Origin: Pseudomonadota bacterium
Lineage (GTDB): Bacteria; Desulfobacterota; Desulfobacteria; Desulfobacterales; RPRI01
Direction: 5' to 3'
Length of the DNA stretch: 60,880 bases
Assembly (NCBI GenBank): GCA_018817425.1
Contig: JAHITX010000067.1
Span: 1-60,880, forward strand
Position 1 is the first letter of the stretch; each line of letters opens with the position of its first letter. A model generated the notes under the pieces. The model saw only the letters and a list, made by a program, of their open reading frames with translations. It was not told where the DNA came from and did not search any database. This document shows positions 14,528 to 59,421 of this stretch, one piece after another. The position numbers were made by a program, and so were the translations under genes.

Positions 14528-14640
14528 TTGACCCTTTGAATCCTTGAACTGTAAACCGTGAACCATAAACTGCGAACCGTAAACTGTAAACCGTTTTTCA
14601 TTGATGCACAGTAACTATAGATATAAAGGGCGCCCTCCCC
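14528..14640. repeat. TA-island boundary repeat, copy 1 (7-bp array plus conserved tail)
   Basis: Units related to CGTGAAC / CGTAAAC / TTGAACT occur about eight times from 14530 to 14596. A ~45-bp tail follows (TTTTTCATTGATGCACAGTA..., ending in AAAGGGCG and a C run). The same tail recurs near 15294, 16432, 16486, 17190 and 17286, always between toxin-antitoxin modules. The DNA between 14375 and 14527 has no recognised gene. Confidence 0.75.
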
Positions 14641-16387: not shown

Positions 16388-16540
16388 AACTTAAAACCGT
16401 GAACCGTAAACTGCGAACTGCGAACTGTAAACTGTTTTTCGTTAATGCCGCAGCAACTACAAATATAAAGGGCGTTCCCCCGTAGTCCTTTAATACACAG
16501 TAACTATAAATGTAAAGGGCGTCCCCCCGTAGTCCTGTGG
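16388..16540. repeat. TA-island boundary repeats, copies 3 and 4
   Basis: An array of CGTGAAC/CGTAAAC/TGCGAAC-type units (16391-16431) leads into a tail TTTTTCGTTAATGCCGCAGC... with AAAGGGCG and a C run ending near 16482. A second tail without array follows at about 16488-16530. Both tails end in the same 'CCCCCGTAGTCCT', so the tail has been tandemly duplicated. Confidence 0.75.
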
Positions 16541-17142: not shown

Positions 17143-17343
17143 TTACCGTAAACTGTGAACTGTGAACCGTGAACTGTGAACTGTAAACTATTTTTCATTA
17201 ATACACAGTAACTACAAATATAAAGGGCGTCCCCCCATCGCCCCCCTTACCGTAAACCGTAAACCGTGAACCGTGAACCGTAAACCGTTTTTTGTTAATG
17301 CCGCAGCAACTACAAATATAAAGGGCGTCCCCCAAGTCGTCCC
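17143..17343. repeat. TA-island boundary repeats, copies 5 and 6
   Basis: Two complete array-plus-tail units stand in tandem. Array 17146-17188 leads to a tail ending near 17240, and array 17248-17285 leads to a tail ending near 17343. Both tails share CAGCAACTAC/CAGTAACTAC, ATATAAAGGGCG and a C run. They close the island directly before the beta-helix gene. Confidence 0.78.
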
Positions 17344-34203: not shown

Positions 34204-35304
34204 ATGCGCATCTCTTATATAGCAGTAAAAGGCATCCCCATTGGCGGAGGAATTGAAAGCGTTACCGAACAGCTTGGTTCCAGGATGGCGGACAGGGGGC
34301 ATGATGTGACCGTTTATTCCAGCCGGGATTATGGAACTGCTGATGGTGTTTATAAAGGTATGAAGATAAAGACTGTTGCATCTTTGAACACCAAATCGCT
34401 TCACAAGATGTCAATATGTTTTAATGCCACTTTTGATGTTATGCGATCCGGGAATGTCGATCTTGTTCATGTGCATGCGGTAGGTCCTTCGCTGTTTTCC
34501 ATTTTTCCGCGTATTAAAGGTATTCCAACTGTTGTGCAAACTCATGGGCTTGAGTGGAAAAGGGACAAATGGGGAATTGTTGGACGTACTTTTTTTAGAT
34601 TTGCCGATTACACGGCAGTATATTTTCCCACAAAAACCACTGTAGTTTCCAAAGTGCAAAAAAAATACTTTGAGGAAAAGTTTGGAAGAGATGTAATTTA
34701 TATACCAAACGGAGTCGCTCCTGTTGAAAAGACTGTCCCGAAATGGCTGCTTGAACAGGGGATTAATCCGAATAAATATATCCTTTTTGCTGCAAGGCTT
34801 GTTGAGGAAAAAGGGGTGCATTATTTAATAGATGCATTTAAAAAAATCAAAACCGATATGCAGCTTGTAATTGCCGGTGATGCGGCTCATTCCGAAAATT
34901 ACATATCAAAAATCAAAGAACTTGCAAGTGAAGATCCCCGTATTATTTTTACAGGTTTTTTAACCGGTTCTCCGCTTGCAGAACTTTTCAGCAATGCCTA
35001 TTTATTTTGTCTGCCTTCAACTATGGAAGGTCTTCCTGTGGCGCTTTTGGAAGCCATGAACTATGGCAACTGTTGCATGTCGAGCGATATCCCGGAGAAC
35101 ATTGAAGCTATCAAAGACCATGGCCACACATTTCGGAATCGCGATAGTGAAGACCTGCGGCATGTACTTTCTGACCTTATAGCACACCCGGAGAAAGTGG
35201 AGGAAAAGAAGGCTGCTGCGATAGAACATGTTCGGCGAAATTATTCCTGGGATAGGGTGACGGATCAAATGGAGGAATTGTATTTATCGGTATTGAGGGG
35301 TTGA
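34204..35304 (+). CDS. Glycosyltransferase, GT4 family
   Basis: This 366-residue GT-B enzyme has 'IPIGGGIESVTEQLGSRMADRGHDV' at the N-terminus, 'VHVHAVGPS', donor-site 'LFAARLVEEKGVHYLIDAF', and the EX7E motif in 'TMEGLPVALLEAM'. It is complete. The stop codon at 35302-35304 lies inside the first 9-bp unit of the downstream repeat array, so the array abuts the gene exactly. Its 5' end is duplicated at 33025. Confidence 0.88.
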   Translation: MRISYIAVKGIPIGGGIESVTEQLGSRMADRGHDVTVYSSRDYGTADGVYKGMKIKTVASLNTKSLHKMSICFNATFDVMRSGNVDLVHVHAVGPSLFSIFPRIKGIPTVVQTHGLEWKRDKWGIVGRTFFRFADYTAVYFPTKTTVVSKVQKKYFEEKFGRDVIYIPNGVAPVEKTVPKWLLEQGINPNKYILFAARLVEEKGVHYLIDAFKKIKTDMQLVIAGDAAHSENYISKIKELASEDPRIIFTGFLTGSPLAELFSNAYLFCLPSTMEGLPVALLEAMNYGNCCMSSDIPENIEAIKDHGHTFRNRDSEDLRHVLSDLIAHPEKVEEKKAAAIEHVRRNYSWDRVTDQMEELYLSVLRG

Positions 35305-35553
35305 GAGCGTTGGGAGTGTTAGGAGCGTTGGGAACGTTGGGAACGTTGGGAGCGTTGGGATGGTTGAGAGCGTTAGGATCGTTGAGATGGTTGGGATGGT
35401 TTGGAGCGTTGGGAACGTTGGGAACGTTGGGAGCGTTGGGATGGTTGAGAGCGTTAGGATCGTTGAGATGGTTGGGATGGTTTGGAGCGTTAGGAGCGTT
35501 GGGAGCGTTGGGACGGTTGGGAGTGTTTGATAGTTAGGAAGGTTTGGGGGGGG
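35300..35553 (+). repeat. Element A, left arm: 9-bp array of GTTnnGAnn
   Basis: About 25 tandem 9-bp units of the type GTTGGGAAC, GTTGGGAGC, GTTGAGATG, GTTTGGAGC run from 35300 to ~35529. A higher-order duplication is perfect: 35327-35407 and 35408-35488 are identical 81-bp blocks of nine units. The array is followed by G8 at 35546-35553. Translations such as (LGx)n from this stretch are not genes. Confidence 0.95.
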
Positions 35554-35557
35554 ATCG

Positions 35558-35950
35558 ATGCCTACGATAAATCGTTTTGAGGATCTGGAATGTTGGCAGG
35601 AGGCCAGGAAGTTAGTCAACATGGTTTATAGAGCCATCAATGAAAATAGGGATTTTCAAAAAGACTATCGTCTCACTGGTCAAATAACAGGGGCAGCTAT
35701 TTCTGTGATGAATAATACAGCCGAAGGCTGGGCTGCCCAGTCTAATAATGAATTCATTCGCTTTTTGACGTATTCTCGAAGGTCCTGTGCAGAAACTCAA
35801 AACTGTTTGTATATTGCAAAGGATCAACAATTTATTACGAAAGATGCTTTTACTGACATTTATGACCAGGCTCTAAAAACAATAAAAATCATCGATGGCT
35901 TACTTCGTTACCTGCGTTCTCAACGAACAAAACGAACCAAACCATCATAA
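35558..35950 (+). CDS. Four-helix-bundle protein (23S rRNA intervening-sequence protein type), element A
   Basis: This 130-residue protein starts 'INRFEDLECWQEARKL', followed by 'GQITGAAISVMNNTAEGW' and 'NNEFIRFLTYSRRSCAETQ'. These are the three signatures of the TIGR02436/S23 family, known from ORFs in 23S rRNA intervening sequences and related to the Avd protein of diversity-generating retroelements. It is complete. Its last codons (QRTKRTKPS) and TAA stop are written in the units of the right arm. The function is unknown; the family fold is a pentameric, probably nucleic-acid-binding bundle. Confidence 0.88.
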   Translation: MPTINRFEDLECWQEARKLVNMVYRAINENRDFQKDYRLTGQITGAAISVMNNTAEGWAAQSNNEFIRFLTYSRRSCAETQNCLYIAKDQQFITKDAFTDIYDQALKTIKIIDGLLRYLRSQRTKRTKPS

Positions 35951-36066
35951 CCATCTAAACCATCACAACCACCTAAACCATCATAACCATCACAACCACC
36001 TAAACCATCACAACCATCTAAACCATCTAAACCATCACAACGATCACAACCATCTAACCCATTTTA
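35921..36066 (-). repeat. Element A, right arm: inverted 9-bp array
   Basis: Thirteen or so 9-bp units (AACCATCAT, AACCATCTA, AACCATCAC, AACCACCTA) run to just before the radical SAM gene. Read on the minus strand the consensus is GTTnnGATG, the same as the left arm. The two arms could pair as an imperfect stem enclosing the four-helix-bundle gene. Confidence 0.93.
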
Positions 36067-36082
36067 AACCTAAAAGGCAATT

Positions 36083-37093
36083 ATGGATGCTTCTATTATA
36101 GTTACTTATCGCTGTCCTATGCGATGTAAGATGTGTAATATCTGGGATAATCCGACTGACAGGGAAAAAGAGATAAAGCCTGAGCAACTGGAGAAAATGC
36201 CACAGGTGAATATTACAAATGTTACCGGCGGAGAGCCTTTAATAAGAGATGATATTGATGAGATCATACATGTTATTATGCAGAAATCCAAACGTGTATG
36301 TATGTCTACCAGTGGTTGGTATACTGATAAATTACTTCAGCTTGCTGAAAAGTATCCTTCGCTTGGTTTTCGCATAAGCATTGAAGGATTATCGCAAAAA
36401 AACGATGAACTTCGTGGTAAGCAGGGAGGTTTTGACAGGGGGCTTCGAGCCTTGCTGGATTTGCGTGCAATGGGAAGAAAAGATGTAGGGTTTGGGATTA
36501 CGGTTTCAAACAACAACTCCAAAGATATGCTTTGGCTTTATGAATTGGCCAAGCAACTGAAGATGGAATTTGCTACTGCTGCATTTCATAATTCATTTTA
36601 TTTCCACAAGGATGACAATATAATTACAAATAAGGATGAAGTTATAGATAATTTTGCAGAACTTATAAATCGCCTTCTTAAAGAAAACAGTCCCAAAAGC
36701 TGGTTCCGGGCTTTTTTTAATCTGGGCCTGATTAATTATATCCGTGGTGAAAAACGATTGCTTCCGTGTGAAGCCGGCACCGAAAATTTTTTTATCGATC
36801 CTTATGGAGAAGTACTGCCATGTAACGGGATGGAAAAAAAATATTGGTTTGAGAGTTTTGGAAATATTGGTAAAGTAAATCATTTTGATGAACTTTGGCA
36901 AAGCAACCATGCTTCTATGATTCGACAGAGGGTTAAAACATGCCCCAAGAATTGCTGGATGATAGGTTCGGTATCGCCCGTGATGCATAAATATATCAAG
37001 CATCCGTTGAAATGGGTTATACGTAACAAACTAAAAAGCCTTATGGGTGCTAAAGTTAATACCGATTGCATAGAAATATATGATGTAGGATGA
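36083..37093 (+). CDS. Radical SAM/SPASM protein
   Basis: This 336-residue protein has the iron-sulfur motif Cys11-x3-Cys15-x2-Cys18 in 'YRCPMRCKMCNIW', 'NVTGGEPLIRDDI' as the SAM-binding GGE motif, and C-terminal cysteines in 'LLPCEAGTENFFIDPYG', 'VLPCNG' and 'CPKNC', which form a SPASM auxiliary cluster site. Such proteins modify peptides or sugars; in EPS loci the target is not known. A start at 36083 with an AAAAGG site is clear. It lies between hairpin elements A and B. Confidence 0.85.
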   Translation: MDASIIVTYRCPMRCKMCNIWDNPTDREKEIKPEQLEKMPQVNITNVTGGEPLIRDDIDEIIHVIMQKSKRVCMSTSGWYTDKLLQLAEKYPSLGFRISIEGLSQKNDELRGKQGGFDRGLRALLDLRAMGRKDVGFGITVSNNNSKDMLWLYELAKQLKMEFATAAFHNSFYFHKDDNIITNKDEVIDNFAELINRLLKENSPKSWFRAFFNLGLINYIRGEKRLLPCEAGTENFFIDPYGEVLPCNGMEKKYWFESFGNIGKVNHFDELWQSNHASMIRQRVKTCPKNCWMIGSVSPVMHKYIKHPLKWVIRNKLKSLMGAKVNTDCIEIYDVG

Positions 37094-37094
37094 G

Positions 37095-37380
37095 GTTTCA
37101 GGTTTCAGGTGTCAGTGATTGGGGGATGTCAGGTTTCGGGTGTCGGGTTTCAGGTGTCAGGTGTCGGGTTTCAGGTGTCAGGATAAGGTTTCAGGGTTCA
37201 GGGGTTTCGGGTTTCGGGTGTTAGGTGTCAGGTGTCAGGATAAGGTGTCGGGTGTTAGGGTTCAGGGTTCAGGGTTCAGAGTTCAGGGTTCAGGGTGTCA
37301 GGGTTCAGGGTGTCAGGGTTCAGGGTTCAGAGTTCAGGTGTCAGGGTTCCACAGTTCACGGTTTTGGGTTTCAGGTGTCA
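37095..37380 (+). repeat. Element B, left arm: 7-bp array GTTTCAG/GTGTCAG
   Basis: Nearly 40 units of about 7 bp (GTTTCAG, GTGTCAG, GTTTCGG, GTGTCGG, GGTTCAG) with occasional 1-2 base slips begin right after the radical SAM stop. They end at the GTG start of the next gene. The open frame through the array is not coding. Confidence 0.93.
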
Positions 37381-37391
37381 GGGGAAGTGAA

Positions 37392-37772
37392 GTGAATGGT
37401 AAAAAATATTTGGATGTTGAGGATCTTGGGGTTTATAGAAAGTTGTGTCAGTTGCATATTGAAGTTTGTGTTTTGACGCACATGTGGCCTGTCGAAGAAA
37501 AATATGAGTTGGGAAGCCAGGCCAGGCGCTCTTCAAACAGTGCTCCAGCACAACTTGCCGAAAAAAACGATGATCGCCATATCCGTAACAAAATAGAAGG
37601 CGTGAATCGTAGTAGAGGAGAAGCTGCTGAAACCATTCACCATCTGTTTATGGCAAAACTCAAAGACTACATCACAGAAATGGTTTATTTAGAATTTAGG
37701 GATCGTTATAAGGAATGCATTCGTATGCTTAATGGCTGGCCCAATACTGCTGAAAATCTTCCTGAACTCTGA
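37392..37772 (+). CDS. Four-helix-bundle protein, divergent type, element B
   Basis: About 126 residues: 'YLDVEDLGVYRKLCQLHIEVCVL', 'YELGSQARRSSNSAPAQLAEKND' and 'GEAAETIHHLFMAKLKDYI'. The pattern matches the four-helix-bundle family but is clearly a different branch from the proteins at 35558 and 42578 (different helix-1 and helix-3 consensus). I place the start at GTG 37392 behind AGGGGAAG, because the frame upstream is pure repeat. The TGA stop is the first triplet of the inverted arm. Confidence 0.75.
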   Translation: MNGKKYLDVEDLGVYRKLCQLHIEVCVLTHMWPVEEKYELGSQARRSSNSAPAQLAEKNDDRHIRNKIEGVNRSRGEAAETIHHLFMAKLKDYITEMVYLEFRDRYKECIRMLNGWPNTAENLPEL

Positions 37773-37795
37773 CACCCGACACCTGACACCTGCTG
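37768..37795 (-). repeat. Element B, short right arm
   Basis: Three inverted units (GACACCC GACACCT GACACCT) directly follow and include the stop codon. They are the reverse complement of GTGTCRG in the left arm. The arm appears cut short by the next, partial copy of the element. Confidence 0.85.
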
Positions 37796-37796
37796 A

Positions 37797-37936
37797 GAGG
37801 TTTCAGGGTTTCGTGTGTCAGGTGTCAGGTTAAGGTGTCGGGTGTCAGGATAGGGTTCAGGGTTTACGGTTTCGGGTTTCGGGATGAGGTGTCGGGGTTC
37901 CACGGTTCACAGTTCACGGTTTCAGGTGTCAGGGGG
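37797..37936 (+). repeat. Element B', left arm of a partial second copy
   Basis: A second array of the same 7-bp units starts immediately after the short right arm. Its last ~45 bases closely match the end of the first array (GGGTTCCACGGTTCAC... then GGAGTGAAGTGAATG). Confidence 0.9.
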
Positions 37937-37942
37937 AGTGAA

Positions 37943-38038
37943 GTGAATGGTAAAAATTATTTGGATGTTGAGGATCTTGGGGTTTATAGAAAGTTTTGTC
38001 AGTTGCATATCTTAGTCACTAAACACTTTTTATTTTAA
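37943..38038 (+). pseudogene. Truncated second copy of the element-B four-helix-bundle gene
   Basis: From GTG 37943 the frame repeats the start of the gene at 37392 with few changes (NGKNYLDVEDLGVYRKFCQLHI) for about 26 codons, then diverges and stops. The element was tandemly duplicated and the second copy was then truncated beside the exosortase gene. Confidence 0.85.
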
Positions 38039-40399: not shown

Positions 40400-40562
40400 A
40401 GTTCAAATCAGTGTTCAGGTTTCAGGATAGGAGCTTTGAACCCCGAGCTTTGAACCCTGAACCCCGAACCCCTGAACCGTGAACCCTGAACTCTGAACCC
40501 CGAACCCCGAACCGTGAACCGTGAACTCTGAACCCTGAACCCCTAACCCCTAACCCATATTT
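40400..40562 (-). repeat. Element F: mostly inverted 7-bp array before the wecA-like gene
   Basis: A short forward stretch (GTTCAAATCAGTGTTCAGGTTTCAGG) is followed by about 17 inverted units (TGAACCC, CGAACCC, TGAACTC, CGTGAAC) that reach to within 3 bases of the next start codon. There is no gene between the two orientations, so this looks like a collapsed element or a lone right arm. Confidence 0.88.
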
Positions 40563-42202: not shown

Positions 42203-42575
42203 GGGTTTTCAGGTTCACAGTTGAAGGTTCAGGGTTCAGGGTTCACGGTTCACAGTTCAAGGTTGGAAAAGAAGAAATAAAGTTCTAAGTTCACGGTTCA
42301 CAGTTCAGGGTTCAGGGTTGGAAAAGAAGAAATAAAGTTCTAAGTTCTAAGTTCACGGTTCAGGGTTGGAAAAATAAAAAAAGTTTCAGGTTCACAGTTC
42401 AAGGTTGGCAAAGAAGAAATAAAGTTCTAAGTTCCAAGTTCACGGTTCACAGTTCACAGTTTACGGTTCACGGTTCAGGGTTGGAAAAATAAATAAAGTT
42501 CCAGGTTCACAGTTCAAGGTTCAAGGTTGGAAAAGAAGAAATAAAGTTCTAAATTCACGGGTTAAGGTTGAAGAG
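42203..42575 (+). repeat. Element C, left arm: GTTCACR array with A-rich spacers
   Basis: Units GTTCACA, GTTCACG, GTTCAGG and GTTCAAG are grouped in clusters. Four or five copies of the spacer GTTGGAAAAGAAGAAATAAA break them up, giving a higher-order repeat. The array runs from just after the wecA-like stop to the start of the four-helix-bundle gene. Confidence 0.94.
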
Positions 42576-42577
42576 CG

Positions 42578-42970
42578 ATGAAAATTGAACGGTTTGAAGA
42601 CATTGAGGCTTGGCAACTGGCACGTGTGTTGACTCGAAAAGTGTACCGTCTGACAAAGAAACCGGGATTTGCGACGGACTATGGGCTGAAGAGGCAGATA
42701 CAAGATGCCGCCGGATCATCGATGCATAATATTGCTGAAAGGTTTGATTCCGAGACGAATGCGGAGTTTATCCGGTTCTTGAGATATGCTAAACGGTCTT
42801 GTACGGAAGTTCAGAGCGAACTATATATGGCTATGGACGAGGAGTACATATCTTCCGACGAATTTAAAGATGTTTACGAACAGGTTAGACAAACCCGAGC
42901 TGCCATTCGTGGATTTATCAACTATCTCAAGAAATATGAAGAGCTCAAGTTAAATAACCGTAAAGCATGA
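42578..42970 (+). CDS. Four-helix-bundle protein (intervening-sequence protein type), element C
   Basis: This 130-residue protein is closely related in pattern to the one at 35558: 'IERFEDIEAWQLARVL', 'LKRQIQDAAGSSMHNIAERF' and 'NAEFIRFLRYAKRSCTEVQ'. It is complete, with a GAAGAG site before ATG 42578. The stop is the TGA of the first TGAACTC unit of the right arm. The function is unknown; the family is known from rRNA intervening sequences and is related to Avd. Confidence 0.88.
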   Translation: MKIERFEDIEAWQLARVLTRKVYRLTKKPGFATDYGLKRQIQDAAGSSMHNIAERFDSETNAEFIRFLRYAKRSCTEVQSELYMAMDEEYISSDEFKDVYEQVRQTRAAIRGFINYLKKYEELKLNNRKA

Positions 42971-43110
42971 ACTCTTAACCCTGAACTGTGAACTGTGAAC
43001 CTTGAACCTTGAACCCAGAACCTTGAACCTTGAACCCTGAACCCAGAACCCTGAACCCTGAACTGTGAACCCTGAACTCTGAACTCTGAACCCTAAACCG
43101 TGAACCTAAT
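42968..43110 (-). repeat. Element C, right arm: inverted GTTCANR array
   Basis: About 20 units (TGAACTG, TGAACCT, TGAACCC, AGAACCC) lie in reverse orientation to the left arm and end about 35 bases before the prsT start. They match the left-arm units when reverse complemented but lack the A-rich spacers. Confidence 0.94.
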
Positions 43111-43149: not shown

Positions 43150-45147
43150 ATGATTATTATTCGACGTAGTGTTTTCTCTGGAATAGCGCTGGTTTTGGCA
43201 GTCATGCTTCTGGTTTCATGCAGCGGGCCGGAAGAGAGGAAGATGGAATTTTTTAATAAAGGCAAAGCTTTGTATGAAAAAGGAGATTATGTTAAGGCCA
43301 GGCTGGAGCTTAAAAACGCTATTCAAATCGATCCTAAATTTGCCGATGCCTATCATCTGCTTGGTCTGATTGCTATGAAGAATCGGGATCTAAGAGCTGC
43401 TTATGGAAACTTTTCGAAGGCCGTCGAGCTTGATCCTGGAAATCTGGACAGCCATGTTCAGTTGGGCGGTTTGTTGCTTAGCACGGGTAAGACGGACGAG
43501 GCTTTAGCAAAAGCAGATTTGGTTTTAAAGAGCGATGCGAACAATGAAGATGCAAATATCCTTAAAGGGGCTGTTTTGCTGGCTAAAAAAAATACGGACG
43601 ATGCACTCAAGTTTCTCTTAGATGTTGTGGGTAGCAAGATTAACAAACCAGACGGTTACCTTCTATTAAGTTTAGCCTATCAAATAAAGGGAGATGAGGA
43701 GAGCGCTGAAAAGACACTTCGGAAAGGTATTGAGGTTAATAAAAAGGCTGTACCTCTTTACCTTCCCCTGATCAACCTTGCCCTGAAAAGGAAACAGACG
43801 GATGAAGCGATAAGAATTGCCCGGATAATTATTGATATTGAGCCAAAAGAAATAAAGTTCCGTCTGACTCTGGCAGATATTTTATGGAACTCGGGCAAAG
43901 AGTCACAGGCGAAAGAAATCCTTAATGCCATGGTTTCAGCCGAACCGGAGGAAGAGAAATCATGGATTCAGGCGGCTAAATTTTATATAATAAAAAACAA
44001 ACCGGCCGAGGCTGAGCAAGAGTTGAAAGAGGGTATCCGTAAGAATGAAAAAAGTTTTATAATACGTTTTGCCCTGGTTGATTTGCTTACGCGCATGAAG
44101 AACTATGATCAGGCTATTGCGGTGCTCCAGGAATGTTTATCCCTGAATAATAATCCGGCTGACCAGCATATTATCCAGACAAAAAATACACTGGCTCGAA
44201 TCTATCTTGGCCGAAATGAGATCGATAAGGCTAAATTATATGTAGATGAAGTAATAAAGGAAAGCCCCAAAAACAGTGATACCAATTATATCAAGGGGGC
44301 CATTCATCTGAGGAAGAAAGAAGGACTCCAGGCTGTTTCAGCCTTTCGGACAGTTGTAAACGAAAGCCCTCAGTTTGCTCCCGGCTATATTAGGCTTGCC
44401 GAGGCCCATATGTTAAATAAGGAAACCAATATGGCCTTTGATACCCTTCAAAATGCCATAAAACTTATGCCCCAATCACGGGATTTAGTTCGGTCTATGG
44501 CGCGTCTTTTTATAACACAAAAACAATTTAAAGATGCAGAAACACAGTATCGAAAAATTCTTGATGCCAATCCCAAAGATTTGGAGATTAGGGCGGAAAT
44601 GGGTGATTTCTTTCAGGCATCCGGTGATTTCGAGCAGGCGGAAAAAGAATATGCAAAAATCAAACAGCAGGCTCCCAAGTTGCCCCTTGGCTATCTAAAG
44701 CTAATAAGCAGCTATCTTACAAGAAAGAATTGGGATAAAGCGAAAGCAGAATATGAGCAATTAATGAAGGTTCAGCCGAATCTTTGGGTTGCAGCAAATG
44801 ACCTGGCCTTTTTACTGGCGGAACATGGGCAGGGTGCAAAAGATCTTGATCGGGCTTTGGTCCTGGCTAAAAAAGCTGAGACTCTTAATCCAAATAATCC
44901 TGCGATTTTTGATACTCTTGGCTGGATTCATTATCGGAGAAATGAGTTGAAACCGGCCATCGAATATCTTGAAAAAGCCCAGGTGGAAATTTCCCGTAAT
45001 CCTACGTTTGCTTATCATTTGGGTATGGCATATTATAAAAACAAAAATTTGGACAAAGCAAAAGAGTATCTACAGTTGGCCTTGACGTCTGAAGCCGGAT
45101 TTGAAGGCAGAGAGCAGGCGGAGAAGATAGTGGCTGGGATGCGTTAA
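43150..45147 (+). CDS. prsT: PrsT-like TPR lipoprotein of the exosortase/EPS system
   Basis: This 665-residue protein has a lipoprotein signal (MIIIRRSVFSGIALVLAVM, lipobox LVSC, Cys24) followed by about 17 tetratricopeptide repeats, e.g. 'GDYVKARLELKNAIQIDPKFADAYHLLG' and 'PDFGDLFQ..'-type units to the end. It matches the PEP-CTERM system TPR protein family (PrsT), though it is shorter than the ~900-residue members. It is likely anchored in the outer or inner membrane, facing the periplasm, as a scaffold for polymer export. GGAGG precedes the start. Confidence 0.85.
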   Translation: MIIIRRSVFSGIALVLAVMLLVSCSGPEERKMEFFNKGKALYEKGDYVKARLELKNAIQIDPKFADAYHLLGLIAMKNRDLRAAYGNFSKAVELDPGNLDSHVQLGGLLLSTGKTDEALAKADLVLKSDANNEDANILKGAVLLAKKNTDDALKFLLDVVGSKINKPDGYLLLSLAYQIKGDEESAEKTLRKGIEVNKKAVPLYLPLINLALKRKQTDEAIRIARIIIDIEPKEIKFRLTLADILWNSGKESQAKEILNAMVSAEPEEEKSWIQAAKFYIIKNKPAEAEQELKEGIRKNEKSFIIRFALVDLLTRMKNYDQAIAVLQECLSLNNNPADQHIIQTKNTLARIYLGRNEIDKAKLYVDEVIKESPKNSDTNYIKGAIHLRKKEGLQAVSAFRTVVNESPQFAPGYIRLAEAHMLNKETNMAFDTLQNAIKLMPQSRDLVRSMARLFITQKQFKDAETQYRKILDANPKDLEIRAEMGDFFQASGDFEQAEKEYAKIKQQAPKLPLGYLKLISSYLTRKNWDKAKAEYEQLMKVQPNLWVAANDLAFLLAEHGQGAKDLDRALVLAKKAETLNPNNPAIFDTLGWIHYRRNELKPAIEYLEKAQVEISRNPTFAYHLGMAYYKNKNLDKAKEYLQLALTSEAGFEGREQAEKIVAGMR

Positions 45148-45149
45148 GA

Positions 45150-45648
45150 AAAGTTCACAGTTGGAAAAGAAAAAAAGTTCACAGTTAGAAAAAGAAAAAA
45201 GTTCACAGTTCACGGTTGGAAAGAAAAAAAAGTTCACGGTTAGAAAAAGAAAAAAGTTCACAGTTCACGGTTGGAAAGAAAAAAAGTTCACAGTTAGAAA
45301 AAGAAAAAAGTTCACAGTTCACGGTTGGAAAGAAAAAAAAGTTCACGGTTAGAAAAAGAAGAAAAAGTTCACGGTTCACGGTTGGAAAAAGAAAAAAAGT
45401 TCACAGTTTACAGTTCACGGTTGGAAAAAGAAAAAAACTGTTTTGAGTGTTGAGTTATGAAAAAAAGTATTCTATGCATTCAAGTCAATCAACTTTGAAC
45501 CTCGAACTGTGAACCTTGAACCCTGAACCGTGAACCCAGAACTTTGAACCCAGAACTTTGAACCGTGAACCCAGAACTTTGAACCCAGAACTTTGAACCC
45601 AGAACCTTGAACCTTGAACCTTGAACCTTGTTGAACCTTGAACTCATG
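45150..45648. repeat. Element D: inverted-arm element with a conserved core but no gene
   Basis: The left arm (45150-45430) alternates GTTCACAGTTCACG units with A-rich spacers (GTTGGAAAGAAAAAAAGTTC-like, at least eight times). The right arm (45497-45648) has inverted units TGAACCT, CGAACTG, AGAACTT and TGAACCC. Between them lies a 39-bp core (45455-45493) that recurs in element E with two differences. Lys/Ser-rich translations of the left arm are not genes. Confidence 0.9.
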
Positions 45649-45675
45649 AGTTACTCAAAGAAGGAGACTGTATAC

Positions 45676-46263
45676 ATGTTGAAAAAAATGTATGTTTTAA
45701 TTATGTTGGCAGGCATATTTACAATCATGCTTCACTCATCATCCTGGGCAGCAGAGGAAGCAGCTATCTTGCCTGAAGCAGGGAGTTATATAATCGGACC
45801 TGGAGATGTTTTGAGCATTTCGGTATGGAAAGATGAGGCATTGACAAGCGTACCAACTGTTTTGCCGGACGGTTTTATTTCCTTTCCATTGATTGGCAAC
45901 ATACAGGCTGCCGGAAATACCGTTGCAGAGCTTAAAGCGGAAATTGAAGGCAAACTCGCCCGCTATGTACCGGATATAGTTTTGTCCCTTGAAGTCAGAC
46001 AGGCCAACAGCATGATTGTTTACGTTATCGGACGGGTGAATGCTCCAGGCAGATTTAATCTAAATGCCAATATCAATGTACTGCAAGCGCTTTCAACCGC
46101 AGGCGGGCTAAATGTTTTTGCAAAAAACAATAAAATAAAGATTTTTCGTGAAGAAAATGGTAAGACACAAATGTTTCCTTTTGAATATGACAAGATTGTG
46201 AAAGGTGAAAATCTGGAACAGAATATTCGCCTGAAAAAGGGTGATATAGTTGTTGTACCCTGA
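45676..46263 (+). CDS. Wza-like polysaccharide export protein
   Basis: This ~195-residue periplasmic/outer-membrane protein has a signal peptide (MLKKMYVLIMLAGIFTIML), the polysaccharide export domain 'YIIGPGDVLSISVWKD' and one SLBB-like domain ('VYVIGRVNAPGRFNLNANINVLQALSTAGG'). It is short for Wza and lacks the C-terminal outer-membrane helix, as is usual for the exosortase-associated form. The neighbouring barrel may provide the pore. The ATG at 45676 has an AAGGAGA site; the frame upstream reads through repeat element D. Confidence 0.88.
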   Translation: MLKKMYVLIMLAGIFTIMLHSSSWAAEEAAILPEAGSYIIGPGDVLSISVWKDEALTSVPTVLPDGFISFPLIGNIQAAGNTVAELKAEIEGKLARYVPDIVLSLEVRQANSMIVYVIGRVNAPGRFNLNANINVLQALSTAGGLNVFAKNNKIKIFREENGKTQMFPFEYDKIVKGENLEQNIRLKKGDIVVVP

Positions 46264-46281
46264 TCAACGGATTGGTATCCC

Positions 46282-47499
46282 ATGACAAGTAAAAAACTCA
46301 TTATTCTTATAGTTACTATTTTTTCTTTTATTATGATTTCTTCTGGTGCTAGAAGTGATGAATTTAAGATTATACCTTCTGTAACTGCGTTAGAAGAATA
46401 TAACAGCAATGTTTTTTTCACGTCATATGAGCCTGAAAGCGACTTTATTACAACTTTTTCTCCGGCTTTTGAGCTTGTGAATCGAACAGAGCGGTCGAAT
46501 GCCAACATCAAGGTCCGGCTCGACCTTATCGGTTATGCCGACAACCGGGATCTTAATGCTACGGATCAATTATACCAGGGAAAGCTTAGGTATAATATTA
46601 CACCACGGTTCGGCATTTCAGCAGATGTCGGGTATCTAAGTGATTCCCGCCCGGACCGGGATTTGGAAACAACCGGCCTTATCACTTCGGATTTGCGCAG
46701 GGATAGAGTTAATACTGCTTTATCCACTGATTATCAGTTTACCGAGCAAGACGCCTTATCGCTTTCCTATGCATATAGTAAGGAGACATTTGACAAGGAG
46801 GGGTATTCCGATACACTGACTCATGAATTTAATGCCGGGCTTACGCACGATTTCAACAAATATGTTCCGGCTCTTAAAGGGTATCTTGGCATAGGCTACA
46901 GTAATTACGATTTTTCCGACAATCAAATGGATATTACTTCGGGAACTGTGGGGCTCTCCCAAGCTTTAAACGAGCTGTGGAGCGTCGGTATTTACGCAGG
47001 CTTGCGGTATGCAGAATCTGAAATTTTAACATACCGATTGGAACCGGTATTGCCGCCGTTTTTATATCAGAGGGTAGCTTATAAAGAAACGGAAGATGCA
47101 TGGGGTTGGCTTGGCAAGGTCTCTCTGATATACAATGGAGAAAGCGGTTACTGTGATATTTCTTACATAAGGGAGATCAGGCCGTCAAGCTTTTATGGTG
47201 TTGCAATGGAACGTAATTCTCTGGAACTTTACAGCCGGTATAAAATGACCTATGAGTTATCAGCGGATCTTCACGTCGGTTATTTTGCCAATAAAACAGA
47301 TAAGCTTGAGTTTTATACACAAAACATAGATAAGGAAAGCTACTATATTAATCCACGCATTAGTTACAATGTGTCAAAAGATATCTCTGTTGAAGCGAAA
47401 TATAAATATAGTCTATATAACGATAATACAGCGGACACAGAAGCTGATAGACACCTTTTCTCTATTCGACTGTATATTCAGCATTCTCTGTTGGAATAG
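46282..47499 (+). CDS. Outer-membrane beta-barrel of the exosortase/EPS system
   Basis: This 405-residue protein has a signal peptide (to about residue 26) and then alternating amphipathic beta strands with many Tyr/Arg/Asp turns ('EEYNSNVFFTSYEPESDFIT', 'GISADVGYLSDSRPDRD', 'LELYSRYKMTYELSADLHV'). This fits the XrtA-associated outer-membrane barrel family, ending in an aromatic/leucine residue near the C-terminus. It is likely the pore partner of the Wza-like protein 18 bases upstream. Confidence 0.78.
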   Translation: MTSKKLIILIVTIFSFIMISSGARSDEFKIIPSVTALEEYNSNVFFTSYEPESDFITTFSPAFELVNRTERSNANIKVRLDLIGYADNRDLNATDQLYQGKLRYNITPRFGISADVGYLSDSRPDRDLETTGLITSDLRRDRVNTALSTDYQFTEQDALSLSYAYSKETFDKEGYSDTLTHEFNAGLTHDFNKYVPALKGYLGIGYSNYDFSDNQMDITSGTVGLSQALNELWSVGIYAGLRYAESEILTYRLEPVLPPFLYQRVAYKETEDAWGWLGKVSLIYNGESGYCDISYIREIRPSSFYGVAMERNSLELYSRYKMTYELSADLHVGYFANKTDKLEFYTQNIDKESYYINPRISYNVSKDISVEAKYKYSLYNDNTADTEADRHLFSIRLYIQHSLLE

Positions 47500-47504
47500 C
47501 AAAA

Positions 47505-47748
47505 GAAGGGTTGGAAAAGAAAAACAGTTCACAGTTCACAGTTTACGGTTGGAAAAAGAAAAAAGGTTCAGGGTTCACAGTTCACGGTTGACGAAGGAAA
47601 AGGATTTAAGGGTTTGCGGATTCAGGGGTTTGAGTGATAGAAAACAACTGTTTTGACTTATGAAAAAAAGGATTCTATGTATTCAAGTCAATCAACCCTG
47701 AACCGTGAACCTTGAACCTTGAACCCTGAACCCTGAACCCTGTAACAT
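47505..47748. repeat. Element E: inverted-arm element with the same core as element D
   Basis: The left arm (47510-47600) has GTTCACA/GTTCACG units and two GTTGGAAAA-type spacers. The right arm (47697-47743) has inverted TGAACCG/TGAACCT/TGAACCC units. The 39-bp core is at 47658-47696. No gene is enclosed. The right arm ends about 20 bases before the next start codon. Confidence 0.9.
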
Positions 47749-47765: not shown

Positions 47766-49340
47766 ATGGAAGCACAGACCACATTAACAGTCAATGAGCT
47801 TATCGGAATTATTAAAAGAAGGCGATGGGGACTTATTATTCCAACAATTGCCGTTTTTTTGATTGCCGTGATAATCTGTTTTAGCATAGATCCTGTCTAT
47901 CGTTCCACATCTACGATTCTTATCGAAGAGCAGGAAATTTCCCGGGACTATGTTATGGCTACTGTGACAAGTCTTGCGGAACAGCGTCTGCAAACCATTA
48001 CCCAGAGGATCATGAGCACGCCGCGACTTCTCAGTGTAATTAATCGCTTCAATCTTTATGCTGATAAAAGAGATAGATTGACGACTGAAGAGATCATAGA
48101 CAACATGCGTGAGGAAGACATCAAGTTTGAGACCGTAACTGCCGATGTCATCGATCAAAGGACCGGAAGACCGACAGAGGCCACAATTGCCTTTACAATT
48201 TCTTATGAGGGGAAAAATCCGGTAGTAGTCCAGCAGGTTGCAAATATGCTTACATCTCTTTATCTGGAAGAAAATATTAAGGTAAAGGCGCAGCAGACAT
48301 CAAGTACGACAAAATTCCTGGAGGATGAAATGAAGTCAGTCCAGAAAAATCTGGCTGAATTGGAAAAGAATATTGCCACCTATAAGGAAAAAAACAATAT
48401 TGCCCTTCCCGAACTTTTTCAGTTCAATCTCATAACACTGGACCGTATTGATAAAGATTTAAACCAGTTTAACGACCAGCTCCGAACCCTTCGGGAGAAG
48501 GAAAGCTCCACACAGGCTCAACTGGCAAATATACCATCGGATGCCCAAATGGGTGACCAGGTCCGGTTGAGAGAACTAAGCGCAATGCTTGTTAATTTAA
48601 AAACCAGGGTATCTGATGAGTATCCTGATGTAATCAAAACAAAAGCGGAAATCGCAGAGCTTGAAAAGCGTCAAAATACTGTAAGTGATTTATCGGCGGT
48701 TCGGCAATTAGACACTCCTGCTTACATTACTCTCAGTTCACAATTGGCCAGCATACAATCAGAAATCGAATCTGCAAAACGGCAGATTGACGATTTGATA
48801 ATAAAAAGACAAAATTTTAATCAAAGAATTGAAGCTTCTCCCCGTGTGGAGGAAGGATATAATAATCTGCTGGCTGAAAGAAATAATACGCAGGCTAAAT
48901 ATAATGATCTGATGAAAAAATTTATGGAAGCAAAAGTGGCATCAGGACTTGAAAAGGATCAACTTGGTGAACGCTTTACGCTGATCAGCCCTGCCGGACT
49001 TCCTGAGAAACCGGTAAGGCCGAATATTCCGGTTATTCTTCTTATCGGCCTTATTTTTGGAATTGGTGCTGGAGTGGGTATGGCATCTATATGGGAGTAT
49101 TCCGACCAATCAGTCCGCCGTTCCGATGACTTAACAAAGGCTTTTCAGATACCCGTTCTCGCAGAGATACCGGAGATTGTTACAGTGGAAGATTTAGCCC
49201 GGGATAGAAAAAAGCGCATAATTATGCTGGTTGCTCTGATCCTCTGCGTTTTGGTGGCTCTGGTGGTCATTCATTTACTGATTATGGATCTGGGTGTTTT
49301 GTGGATTCGTATAATGCGTTACCTGAAGATGAGGTTTTAG
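47766..49340 (+). CDS. Polysaccharide chain-length determinant (Wzz/GNVR, XrtA-associated)
   Basis: This ~524-residue inner-membrane protein has an N-terminal Wzz domain with TM1 near residues 25-45 ('GLIIPTIAVFLIAVIICF'), long coiled-coil stretches in the middle ('LEDEMKSVQKNLAELEKNIATYKEK'), the GNVR-like 'YNDLMKKFMEAKVASGLEKDQLGERF' and TM2 ('IPVILLIGLIFGIGAGVGM'), then a further C-terminal TM helix. It controls polymer length with the tyrosine kinase downstream. The ATG at 47766 follows AAAGGA. Confidence 0.88.
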   Translation: MEAQTTLTVNELIGIIKRRRWGLIIPTIAVFLIAVIICFSIDPVYRSTSTILIEEQEISRDYVMATVTSLAEQRLQTITQRIMSTPRLLSVINRFNLYADKRDRLTTEEIIDNMREEDIKFETVTADVIDQRTGRPTEATIAFTISYEGKNPVVVQQVANMLTSLYLEENIKVKAQQTSSTTKFLEDEMKSVQKNLAELEKNIATYKEKNNIALPELFQFNLITLDRIDKDLNQFNDQLRTLREKESSTQAQLANIPSDAQMGDQVRLRELSAMLVNLKTRVSDEYPDVIKTKAEIAELEKRQNTVSDLSAVRQLDTPAYITLSSQLASIQSEIESAKRQIDDLIIKRQNFNQRIEASPRVEEGYNNLLAERNNTQAKYNDLMKKFMEAKVASGLEKDQLGERFTLISPAGLPEKPVRPNIPVILLIGLIFGIGAGVGMASIWEYSDQSVRRSDDLTKAFQIPVLAEIPEIVTVEDLARDRKKRIIMLVALILCVLVALVVIHLLIMDLGVLWIRIMRYLKMRF

Positions 49341-58131: not shown

Positions 58132-59421
58132 ATGGCTGACTTAATAGATATTTTCAAAGAAAGAGGCTTTATTGAAAACACCACTCATGATGAGGAGCTC
58201 AAAGACTATATCGGTAATAATGAGGTCACTTGCTATATAGGCTTTGATCCCACCGCATCGAGTTTGCATGTTGGAAGCCTTGTCCCTATAATGTCACTTG
58301 CCCATATGCAAAAATATGGGCACAGACCTATTGCTCTTATAGGTGGTGGAACAGGCCTGATAGGCGATCCAAGCGGAAAAACCGAGATGAGGCAGTTTTT
58401 GACTCCTGAAAAGATTAAAGACAATATTGTCGGTATAAAAAAACAGCTTTCACGGTTTATTGATTTTAGTGACAACAAGGCCCTTCTTGTTAATAATAAT
58501 GAATGGCTTAGTGAATTAAAATATATCCCTTTTTTAAGAGATATTGGAAGGCATTTTTCAGTTAACCGGATGATAAAAGCCGAAAGCTATAAGCTAAGAC
58601 TTGATTCTGAAGAAGGGCTTAGCTTTATTGAGTTTAATTATATGTTACTACAGGCATATGATTTTTTAGAACTTTTTGATAAATATCAGTGCAGGCTGCA
58701 AATGGGAGGCAGTGACCAATGGGGAAATATTGTTGCAGGCATTGAACTTATAAGAAAAGTTAAAAAAAGCATCTCTTTTGGCATTACTTTTCCATTAATA
58801 AAAACCAGTAATGGAGCTAAAATGGGAAAAACTGCAAAAGGCGCTGTATGGCTGGATCCGGAAAGAACAACTCCTTATGATTACTATCAGTACTGGATAA
58901 ATACTGACGACAGGGATGTAGCGCGTTTTTTGGCTCTTTTTACATTTTTGCCGATAAATGAGATAAGAGATATCGAAAAATTAGAAGGAGCTGATTTAAA
59001 TAGTGCCAAAACAATACTTGCGTTTGAAACAACTTTACTTGCACACGGACGTGATGAAGCGGTTAAAGCATATCAAGCTGCTGCAAGCGTTTTTAACAAA
59101 CGATTTGTCCCGAAAGATATGTTGATGCACAGCTCTGTGCCAAGAGATAGCGCTGAAATCAAAGATGTATCCGTTCCTTGTTCTTATATTGATCATGATG
59201 TTTTTAAATTGGGAATTCCCGCTTTTAAGCTTTTTCATGAGGTAGAACTTGCTTCATCCGGAGCTGCCGCAAGAAGGCTTGTCGAACAGGGAGGAGCTTA
59301 TGTAAATGATAGGCGAATCGAAAAGTTTGACGAATTGATTACCTTAAATGATATCCATGAGATGGAGATCTTGTTAAGATCAGGCAAAAAGCGGATTCAT
59401 AAAATCAGAATAAAACAGTGA
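58132..59421 (+). CDS. tyrS: Tyrosine--tRNA ligase
   Basis: This 429-residue enzyme charges tRNA(Tyr). The HIGH-like motif HVGS is near residues 46-49, the KMSKS-like 'KMGKT' near 231, and a C-terminal S4 domain ('AAARRLVEQGGAYVNDRRI') is present. The ATG at 58132 follows GAGGGA; an earlier in-frame ATG at 58090 lies inside rny. Its last ~165 bases are duplicated at 59977 beyond a transposase fragment. Confidence 0.95.
   Translation: MADLIDIFKERGFIENTTHDEELKDYIGNNEVTCYIGFDPTASSLHVGSLVPIMSLAHMQKYGHRPIALIGGGTGLIGDPSGKTEMRQFLTPEKIKDNIVGIKKQLSRFIDFSDNKALLVNNNEWLSELKYIPFLRDIGRHFSVNRMIKAESYKLRLDSEEGLSFIEFNYMLLQAYDFLELFDKYQCRLQMGGSDQWGNIVAGIELIRKVKKSISFGITFPLIKTSNGAKMGKTAKGAVWLDPERTTPYDYYQYWINTDDRDVARFLALFTFLPINEIRDIEKLEGADLNSAKTILAFETTLLAHGRDEAVKAYQAAASVFNKRFVPKDMLMHSSVPRDSAEIKDVSVPCSYIDHDVFKLGIPAFKLFHEVELASSGAAARRLVEQGGAYVNDRRIEKFDELITLNDIHEMEILLRSGKKRIHKIRIKQ

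What the first reader, a model, noticed from the sequence alone, without database searches (positions are those of the whole stretch)
45150..47748. Elements D and E share a 39-bp core and no gene: candidate non-autonomous versions
The cores at 45455-45493 and 47658-47696 differ at only two positions, although the arms around them differ in length and order. An AACTGTTTTGA motif precedes both. A conserved core between decaying simple-repeat arms indicates function or recent common origin, like a MITE derived from the gene-bearing form. The two sites flank the wza-like and barrel genes.
Basis: seen in the sequence. Interest (0 to 1): 0.68.

Follow-up and report, generated by a model that had tools for sequence, protein, structure and literature searches.

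The report
Gene-stripped relics of a mobile element
Two small repeat structures between polysaccharide genes look like worn-out copies of a tiny mobile element that normally carries a gene otherwise known from inserts in ribosomal RNA; complete copies with transposon-like ends exist in related genomes.

Summary
D and E are inverted heptad-repeat arms around near-identical cores (2 differences in 39 nt) without a gene. No further copy of this core was found in the 5.1-Mb assembly, so the literal prediction failed. The broader idea holds. Window element A has the same arms around a PF05635/TIGR02436 gene, the 23S-rRNA intervening-sequence protein, IVP. Of 20 other repeat regions of this genome examined, 15 match both ends of a complete IVP element with the inside missing. 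The last 14 nt of the D/E core match the gene's 3' end in those relics; D and E score highest in the window. Complete 467-bp elements elsewhere have GTAACTACTCAGG ends, an intact IVP gene and perfect 8-bp target duplications. IS66-family elements in the same genus and order have GTAACTATTCAGC ends and 8-bp duplications. Best reading: D/E are gene-deleted, arm-expanded relics of an IVP-carrying, IS66-like MITE. A, D and E lack recognisable outer repeats, so their mobility is inferred from siblings, and no transposase with exactly these ends was found. Ten literature searches listed no such element.

The parts
45153..45419 (+). D, left arm: GTTCAC heptads with GGTTGGAAAAAGAAAAAA spacers
45436..45493 (+). 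D, AACTGTTTTGA motif and 39-nt core; last 14 nt (45480-45493) resemble the 3' end of the IVP gene
45494..45643 (-). D, right arm: TGAACCY heptads, inverted relative to the left arm
47509..47590 (+). E, left arm
47646..47696 (+). E, AACTGTTTTGA motif and 39-nt core; last 14 nt (47683-47696) resemble the 3' end of the IVP gene
47697..47742 (-). E, right arm
42213..43105 (+). Element A: gene-bearing relative with the same kind of arms (left 42213-42549, right 42966-43105)
42578..42970 (+). IVP gene of element A, 130 aa, four-helix-bundle protein (PF05635, TIGR02436)
35300..36062 (+). Another IVP gene (35558-35950) between arms of a different 9-nt unit
37093..38020 (+). Another IVP domain (37419-37736) in arms of GGTGTCA-type units
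43150..45147 (+). Neighbour: TPR protein, PrsT-like (TIGR02917)
45646..46263 (+). Neighbour: Wza-like polysaccharide export protein; start codon at 45646 or 45676
46282..47499 (+). Neighbour: outer-membrane beta-barrel protein
47766..49340 (+). Neighbour: Wzz-like chain-length determinant

Best explanation
D and E are gene-deleted, arm-expanded relics of a small mobile element. Its complete form is about 467 bp: GTAACTACTCAGG terminal inverted repeats, short GTTCAC-type repeat arms, and one gene for a four-helix-bundle IVP (PF05635). The complete form sits in intergenic DNA flanked by an 8-bp target duplication; it is most likely moved in trans by an IS66-family transposase that recognises GTAACTAYTCAG-type ends. 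Internal deletions of the IVP gene leave short arm-core-arm copies; slippage later expands the arms, and template switching between the arms may keep them complementary. SHOWN by sequence: gene-bearing sibling A; internally deleted copies; complete copies with intact gene and perfect duplications; IS66 elements with similar ends and 8-bp duplications in relatives; a 14-nt gene-end remnant in D/E. INFERRED: trans-mobilisation, the arm dynamics, and that D and E once had the outer repeats. As D and E share a private core, one probably gave rise to the other or both came from one recent copy.
For: Same arm type as gene-bearing A. 15 of 20 examined own-genome regions match a 5' and a 3' piece of the complete element with the inside missing. 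Weight matrix of 3' gene ends from other contigs ranks D (23.95) and E (23.63) first and second in the window, best of 50 shuffled windows 19.04; E aligns to positions 420-449 of the complete element at 90% over 30 nt. Terminal-repeat pattern at 34 own places vs 6 control; 6 of 11 own terminal-repeat pairs have flanking 8-mers alike at 6 or more of 8; automatic boundaries 5 of 14 vs 2 of 182 cross-pairs. Complete 467-bp elements L207, L208 with perfect duplications and open IVP genes. Blind scan: 5 of 114 IVP loci with both terminal repeat and duplication, 0 in five sets of 114 mismatched flanks. IS66 elements L314, L316, L332 with GTAACYATTCAGC ends and perfect 8-bp duplications. IVP gene of A vs L145: dN 0.075, dS 0.514.
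Against: A, D and E have no outer repeat above chance (best 4-6 mismatches of 13) and no TIR pair of theirs passed. The D/E core aligned alone to the whole gene is matched by 368 and 315 of 2000 shuffles, and the gene-side columns of the weight matrix alone do not exceed shuffled windows. No gene-end piece was listed for D. The left half of the core is not explained by the gene. No IS66 copy with GTAACTACTCAGG at both ends was found in 31 loci, and six of the ten genomes of the genus (G001-G004, G007, G008) have no PF03050 match although some have many such terminal repeats.
Confidence: 0.7

Rival explanations
1. Local copying only: one arm-core-arm unit arose at D or E and was copied 2.2 kb away by gene conversion or recombination between arrays, with no transposition of D/E at any time.
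For: The core is private to D and E; D/E lack outer repeats; A, D and E, within 5.5 kb, share the GGTTGGAAAAG spacer type.
Against: Needs a separate origin for the gene-end remnant and for the other gene-deleted copies in the genome. It is compatible with my reading for the last step (D from E or the reverse).
Confidence: 0.15
2. The inverted arms are kept for a function in the operon: an RNA stem between prsT-wza and barrel-wzz that affects mRNA processing or relative expression; origin of the sequence is secondary.
For: G006 has inverted arms of unrelated sequence in both orthologous spaces. As RNA, D (z -3.36), E (z -2.97) and G006 D' (z -3.56) fold better than all shuffles.
Against: G006 E' is not clearly more stable than shuffles (z -1.63, 11 of 200 as good). 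Such arms occur at many unrelated loci, and any inverted repeat folds well.
Confidence: 0.1
3. Pure repeat expansion: simple heptad satellites grown by slippage, with chance gene-like words in the core.
For: Units differ between loci and genomes; some arrays have no element around them (L031, L034, L058, L064).
Against: Conserved core, gene-end remnant flush with the right arm, and terminal repeats with target duplications in siblings.
Confidence: 0.05

Closest known systems
Bacterial MITEs (non-autonomous elements moved in trans)
   Same: Short, terminal inverted repeats, target duplications, internal-deletion copies, no transposase (siblings of D/E).
   Different: The complete form carries a conserved foreign gene (IVP), and the arms are variable tandem repeats. 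D and E themselves show no outer repeats or duplication.
IS66 family insertion sequences (PF03050)
   Same: GTAA termini and 8-bp target duplications; L314, L316 and L332 end in GTAACYATTCAGC, close to GTAACTACTCAGG.
   Different: The IVP elements have no transposase gene; similarity is confined to about 13 nt of the ends; no IS66 with the identical end at both sides was found.
23S rRNA intervening sequences (IVS) with an IVP/S23p ORF
   Same: A single PF05635 gene between complementary ends, about 0.43-0.47 kb (PMC4990558, abstract and passages).
   Different: The elements here lie between protein genes, not in rRNA, and show terminal repeats with 8-bp target duplications; these features are not described in the IVS passages I saw.
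Avd of diversity-generating retroelements
   Same: Avd is reported to resemble PF05635 (PMC10053308, passages).
   Different: No reverse transcriptase or template/variable repeat is among the window genes annotated here; no systematic search was made.

Membership tests
MITE (D and E themselves) | Terminal inverted repeats at the outer ends | tested here: not met
   Best 4-6 mismatches of 13 at the ends of A, D and E, as in random stretches
MITE (D and E themselves) | No transposase gene, small size | tested here: met
   No gene between the arms
MITE (sibling IVP elements) | Terminal inverted repeats | tested here: met
   34 own-genome places vs 6 control, inward-facing pairs; complete L207, L208, L145
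MITE (sibling IVP elements) | Target-site duplication of fixed length | tested here: met
   8 bp: perfect in L207 and L208, 7 of 8 in L145/L210 and L242; 6 of 11 own pairs at 6 or more of 8. Not every element shows it.
MITE (sibling IVP elements) | Ends shared with an autonomous partner | tested here: inconclusive
   IS66 copies with GTAACYATTCAGC ends, G031 IS66 right end GTAACTATTCAGG but no left end found; none identical at both ends
IS66 family | Encodes a PF03050 transposase | tested here: not met
   Only an IVP gene in the complete 467-bp elements
23S rRNA IVS | PF05635 ORF | tested here: met
   Element A, 1.7e-26; D and E have only a remnant
23S rRNA IVS | Located in an rRNA gene | tested here: not met
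   Window elements lie between protein genes
23S rRNA IVS | Excision of the RNA by RNase III | not testable with these tools
   Folding only
Diversity-generating retroelement | Reverse transcriptase with template and variable repeats | not tested
   No search for these was made

The most novel reading that the evidence does not exclude
IVP/S23p genes are cargo of a widespread class of transposon-like elements (IS66-type ends, 8-bp duplications, repeat arms that turn over in sequence but stay complementary), and the 23S rRNA intervening sequences are the subset that landed in rRNA. IVP itself would then aid mobility or tolerance of the insert, for example by binding the arm hairpin.
Probability: 0.25. 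Interest if true: 0.85.

Novelty: new variant of a known kind. Interest (0 to 1): 0.58.

Why it matters
Inserts in 23S rRNA that carry an IVP/S23p ORF have long been called selfish, but their mobility is given only as a hypothesis (PMC4990558, passages). Complete 467-bp elements outside rRNA, with clean ends, an intact IVP gene and perfect target duplications, indicate that this gene family does ride on a mobile unit and give a concrete substrate for a transposition assay. They also account for a common kind of intergenic repeat in these genomes, including D and E.

Tried and rejected
More copies of the 39-nt core: none in the own genome; matches in five relatives reach only positions 1-43 of the 65-nt query, mostly the AACTGTTTTGAG half, a motif repeated in G001 and G006. 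Third weight-matrix hit at 58449-58469 (18.85): no array there, within the range of shuffled windows, rejected as chance. Own IS66 copy L129 as mobiliser: its ends are GTAAGCG. Empty-site test for the C40 element: 5 relatives align across the joined flanks (G026, G053, G043, G019, G035) but are too diverged to show a single target copy; further spanning matches (G002, G046) were not inspected; G006 holds the element. Local segmental duplication: flanking genes differ.

Limits and rows left out; 20 loci scanned, 16 gave a site, one (L030) spurious, L035/L065 the same copy; shuffles there were mononucleotide shuffles; element A itself scores only 13.16; 61 loci given, L197 dropped (short flank); partial PF05635 matches not given. 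The direct-orientation control also exceeded the 99th-percentile line in 8 of 60, against 13 of 60 for the inverted orientation; 74 of 80 loci given (L240, L251, L267, L272, L283, L286 left out); cross-pair control 2 of 56 at 6 or more of 8; loci with short flanks were dropped by the script; L210 was not given, and L145 was entered with approximate gene coordinates that excluded its right end; of the 5 hits, L175 and L191 do not have GTAAC ends and L191 may be an arm-repeat artefact; 20 regions chosen by eye; 5 did not show both ends (C122b terminal repeats only, C123b and C100 5' end only, C18 and C55 arms only); arrays L031, L034, L058, L064 not included; the remnant consensus was typed after seeing the relics and D/E; loci were chosen by hand; 5 of the 23 relatives (L207, L208, L242, L213, L120) were added after their ends were known, without them it is 5 of 18 (my count from the same table); L087 scored 7 of 8 but 2 with the automatic boundary.

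Full report
OBSERVATION. D and E are real. Each has a left arm of GTTCAC heptads with GGTTGGAAAAAGAAAAAA spacers, a core, and a right arm of inverted TGAACCY heptads. The 39-nt cores differ at two positions and AACTGTTTTGA precedes both. The arrays fill most of the spaces prsT-wza and barrel-wzz in a cluster of exosortase/PEP-CTERM-type polysaccharide genes. The heptad-array pattern has 157 places in the genome against 0 for its backwards control; the core was found only at D and E.

THE GENE-BEARING FORM. Element A (arms 42213-42549 and 42966-43105) has the same kind of arms, including a GGTTGGAAAAG spacer, around a 130-aa protein of PF05635 (1.7e-26) and TIGR02436 (4.4e-27); the one solved relative found is 2GSC. 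Two more IVP genes in the window sit in arms of other units. The own genome has 13 PF05635 matches, 9 over the cut-off; 10 of 10 genomes of the genus have a match, 9 over the cut-off; 87 of 148 genomes sampled from the phylum, 82 over the cut-off. The gene of A against that of L145 gives dN 0.075 and dS 0.514, as expected of a gene kept under selection.

DELETED DERIVATIVES. Of 20 own-genome regions on other contigs, chosen by eye from array and terminal-repeat hits, 15 match a 5' piece and a 3' piece of the complete element L208 with the inside missing. A weight matrix of 16 gene 3' ends from other contigs (one spurious, one duplicated) ranks D (23.95) and E (23.63) first and second on both strands of the window; the best of 50 shuffled windows is 19.04. 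The match is flush with the right arm, as in the relics, and E aligns to positions 420-449 of L208 at 90%. Against this: the gene-side columns alone do not exceed shuffled windows, the core alone against the whole gene is equalled by 368 (D) and 315 (E) of 2000 shuffles, though its best place is exactly the gene's end (420-433); against the typed relic consensus 0 of 2000 reach it. D and E share ancestry and count once. The left half of the core resembles a motif repeated in G001 and G006 and is not explained by the gene.

MOBILITY OF THE FAMILY. GTAACTACTCAGGTT with up to 2 mismatches has 34 places in the own genome against 6 for the control, several as inward-facing pairs. Of 11 pairs, five have flanking 8-mers alike at 7 of 8 and one at 6 of 8. 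With automatic boundaries 5 of 14 own elements reach 6 of 8 against 2 of 182 cross-pairs, and 9 of 23 relatives against 13 of 506 (the relatives were partly chosen after their ends were known). The protein of A found 247 relatives in named genome contigs, 80 loci kept, at 80% identity or more in contigs labelled Desulfobacterota, Chloroflexota, Methylomirabilota, Elusimicrobia and Opitutia (these are metagenome bins, so labels may be wrong). Of 74 of these loci, 8 have both terminal repeats within 3 mismatches (backwards control 0); 4 of the 8 have duplications at 7 or 8 of 8, against 2 of 56 cross-pairs at 6 or more. L207 and L208 are complete, 467 bp, with perfect duplications and open 130-codon genes. 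A blind scan found 5 of 114 IVP loci with terminal repeat and duplication and none in five sets of mismatched flanks; three of the five have GTAACTAYTCAGG ends, among them L120 of G008, whose IVP looks different from that of A.

A, D and E themselves show no outer repeat above chance (4-6 mismatches of 13). By eye the right end of A (ACCTAATAACTTGATTGAGTAGTT) recalls the sibling end ACCTAACAACCTGAGTAGTTAC, with an insertion.

CANDIDATE MOBILISER. In 31 IS66 loci examined, 4 have perfect 8-bp duplications at GTAA ends (L308, L314, L316, L322) and own copy L129 has 7 of 8 with GTAAGCG ends. L314 (1718 bp) and L316 (1758 bp) end in GTAACYATTCAGC, as does L332 of G006 in the same genus (1723 bp, perfect duplication). 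In G031, host of the complete element L145, an IS66 gene has a right end GTAACTATTCAGG, but no left end was found. No copy with GTAACTACTCAGG at both ends was seen. PF03050 matches occur in 26 of 59 genomes, but not in G001-G004, G007 and G008, some of which have many of these terminal repeats. Trans-mobilisation by such a transposase is the best inference, not shown.

D AND E IN A RELATIVE. G006 has the same gene order, by its barrel gene (59% identity) and by the look of its other translations. Its two spaces also hold inverted arms, of unrelated units; its D space has an AAACTGTGTTGAGTGTTG stretch in the opposite orientation to that of D. Folded as RNA, D, E and G006 D' beat all shuffles (z -3.36, -2.97, -3.56); G006 E' does not (z -1.63, 11 of 200 as good). 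Across 60 IVP loci the upstream arm matches its own downstream arm (median 21 against 9 for other loci); 45 exceed the 95th percentile of mismatched pairs, 13 the 99th, and the own arm is the best partner in 22; the direct-orientation control passes the 99th percentile in 8. So arms tend to stay complementary within an element while units differ between elements. Template switching in quasi-palindromes is my suggested cause (recalled, not tested).

KNOWN OR NEW. IVS elements of 23S rRNA with an S23p ORF are called selfish or parasitic, and their mobility is mentioned as a hypothesis (PMC4990558, abstract and passages). PF05635 resembles Avd (PMC10053308, passages). A paper on Coxiella MITEs lists the IVS as a separate selfish element in the passages I saw (PMC5896051). 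Ten searches of open-licence PMC papers (otherwise listings only) listed no report of IVP genes in transposon-like elements outside rRNA; subscription papers are not covered. That IS66 elements typically have GTAA ends and 8-bp duplications is also my recollection, in line.

VERDICT. D and E are most likely immobile relics with one recent common source.

Noticed in passing
window 14595-14640, 16435-16530, 17190-17245, 17287-17335; also L009 and L070 (G006): A repeated block (TTTTTCATTAATRCACAG..AACT..AAATATAAAGGGCGTCCCCC) directly after heptad arrays, also in G006; an attC- or REP-like nature was not tested.
   Followed up: no
window 37396-38020: IVP gene in GGTGTCA-type arms followed by a second, truncated copy of its first ~75 nt (from about 37938) in direct orientation (read).
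   Followed up: no
window 40435-40556: Another heptad array (minus orientation) with only arm-level matches to the complete element; no core or gene recognised.
   Followed up: partly
L136, L137, L150, L152 (G005, G004, G008, G002): Short (71-116 bp) elements with the same GTAACTACTCAGG ends but GGCTGTAGG-type arms; L137 and L150 lie beside what look like the same genes in two genomes.
   Followed up: partly
L209, L213, L219, L231: IVP proteins 83-87% identical to that of A in bins labelled Chloroflexota, Methylomirabilota, Elusimicrobia and Opitutia: transfer between phyla or mis-binned contigs.
   Followed up: no
L011, L067, L068, L069 (G001): Module GATAGAAACGAAAAACTGTTTTGAGTGTTGTGTGTTGAGTTTTGAGTTATGAAA repeated in intergenic DNA, like the left half of the D/E core; nature unexplained.
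   Followed up: partly
L017, L018, L028 (G000 C38, C52, C100): A second own-genome IVP lineage with GGATTCAAGG-type arms, including a gene-deleted copy (L028), so internal deletion is not confined to one lineage.
   Followed up: partly
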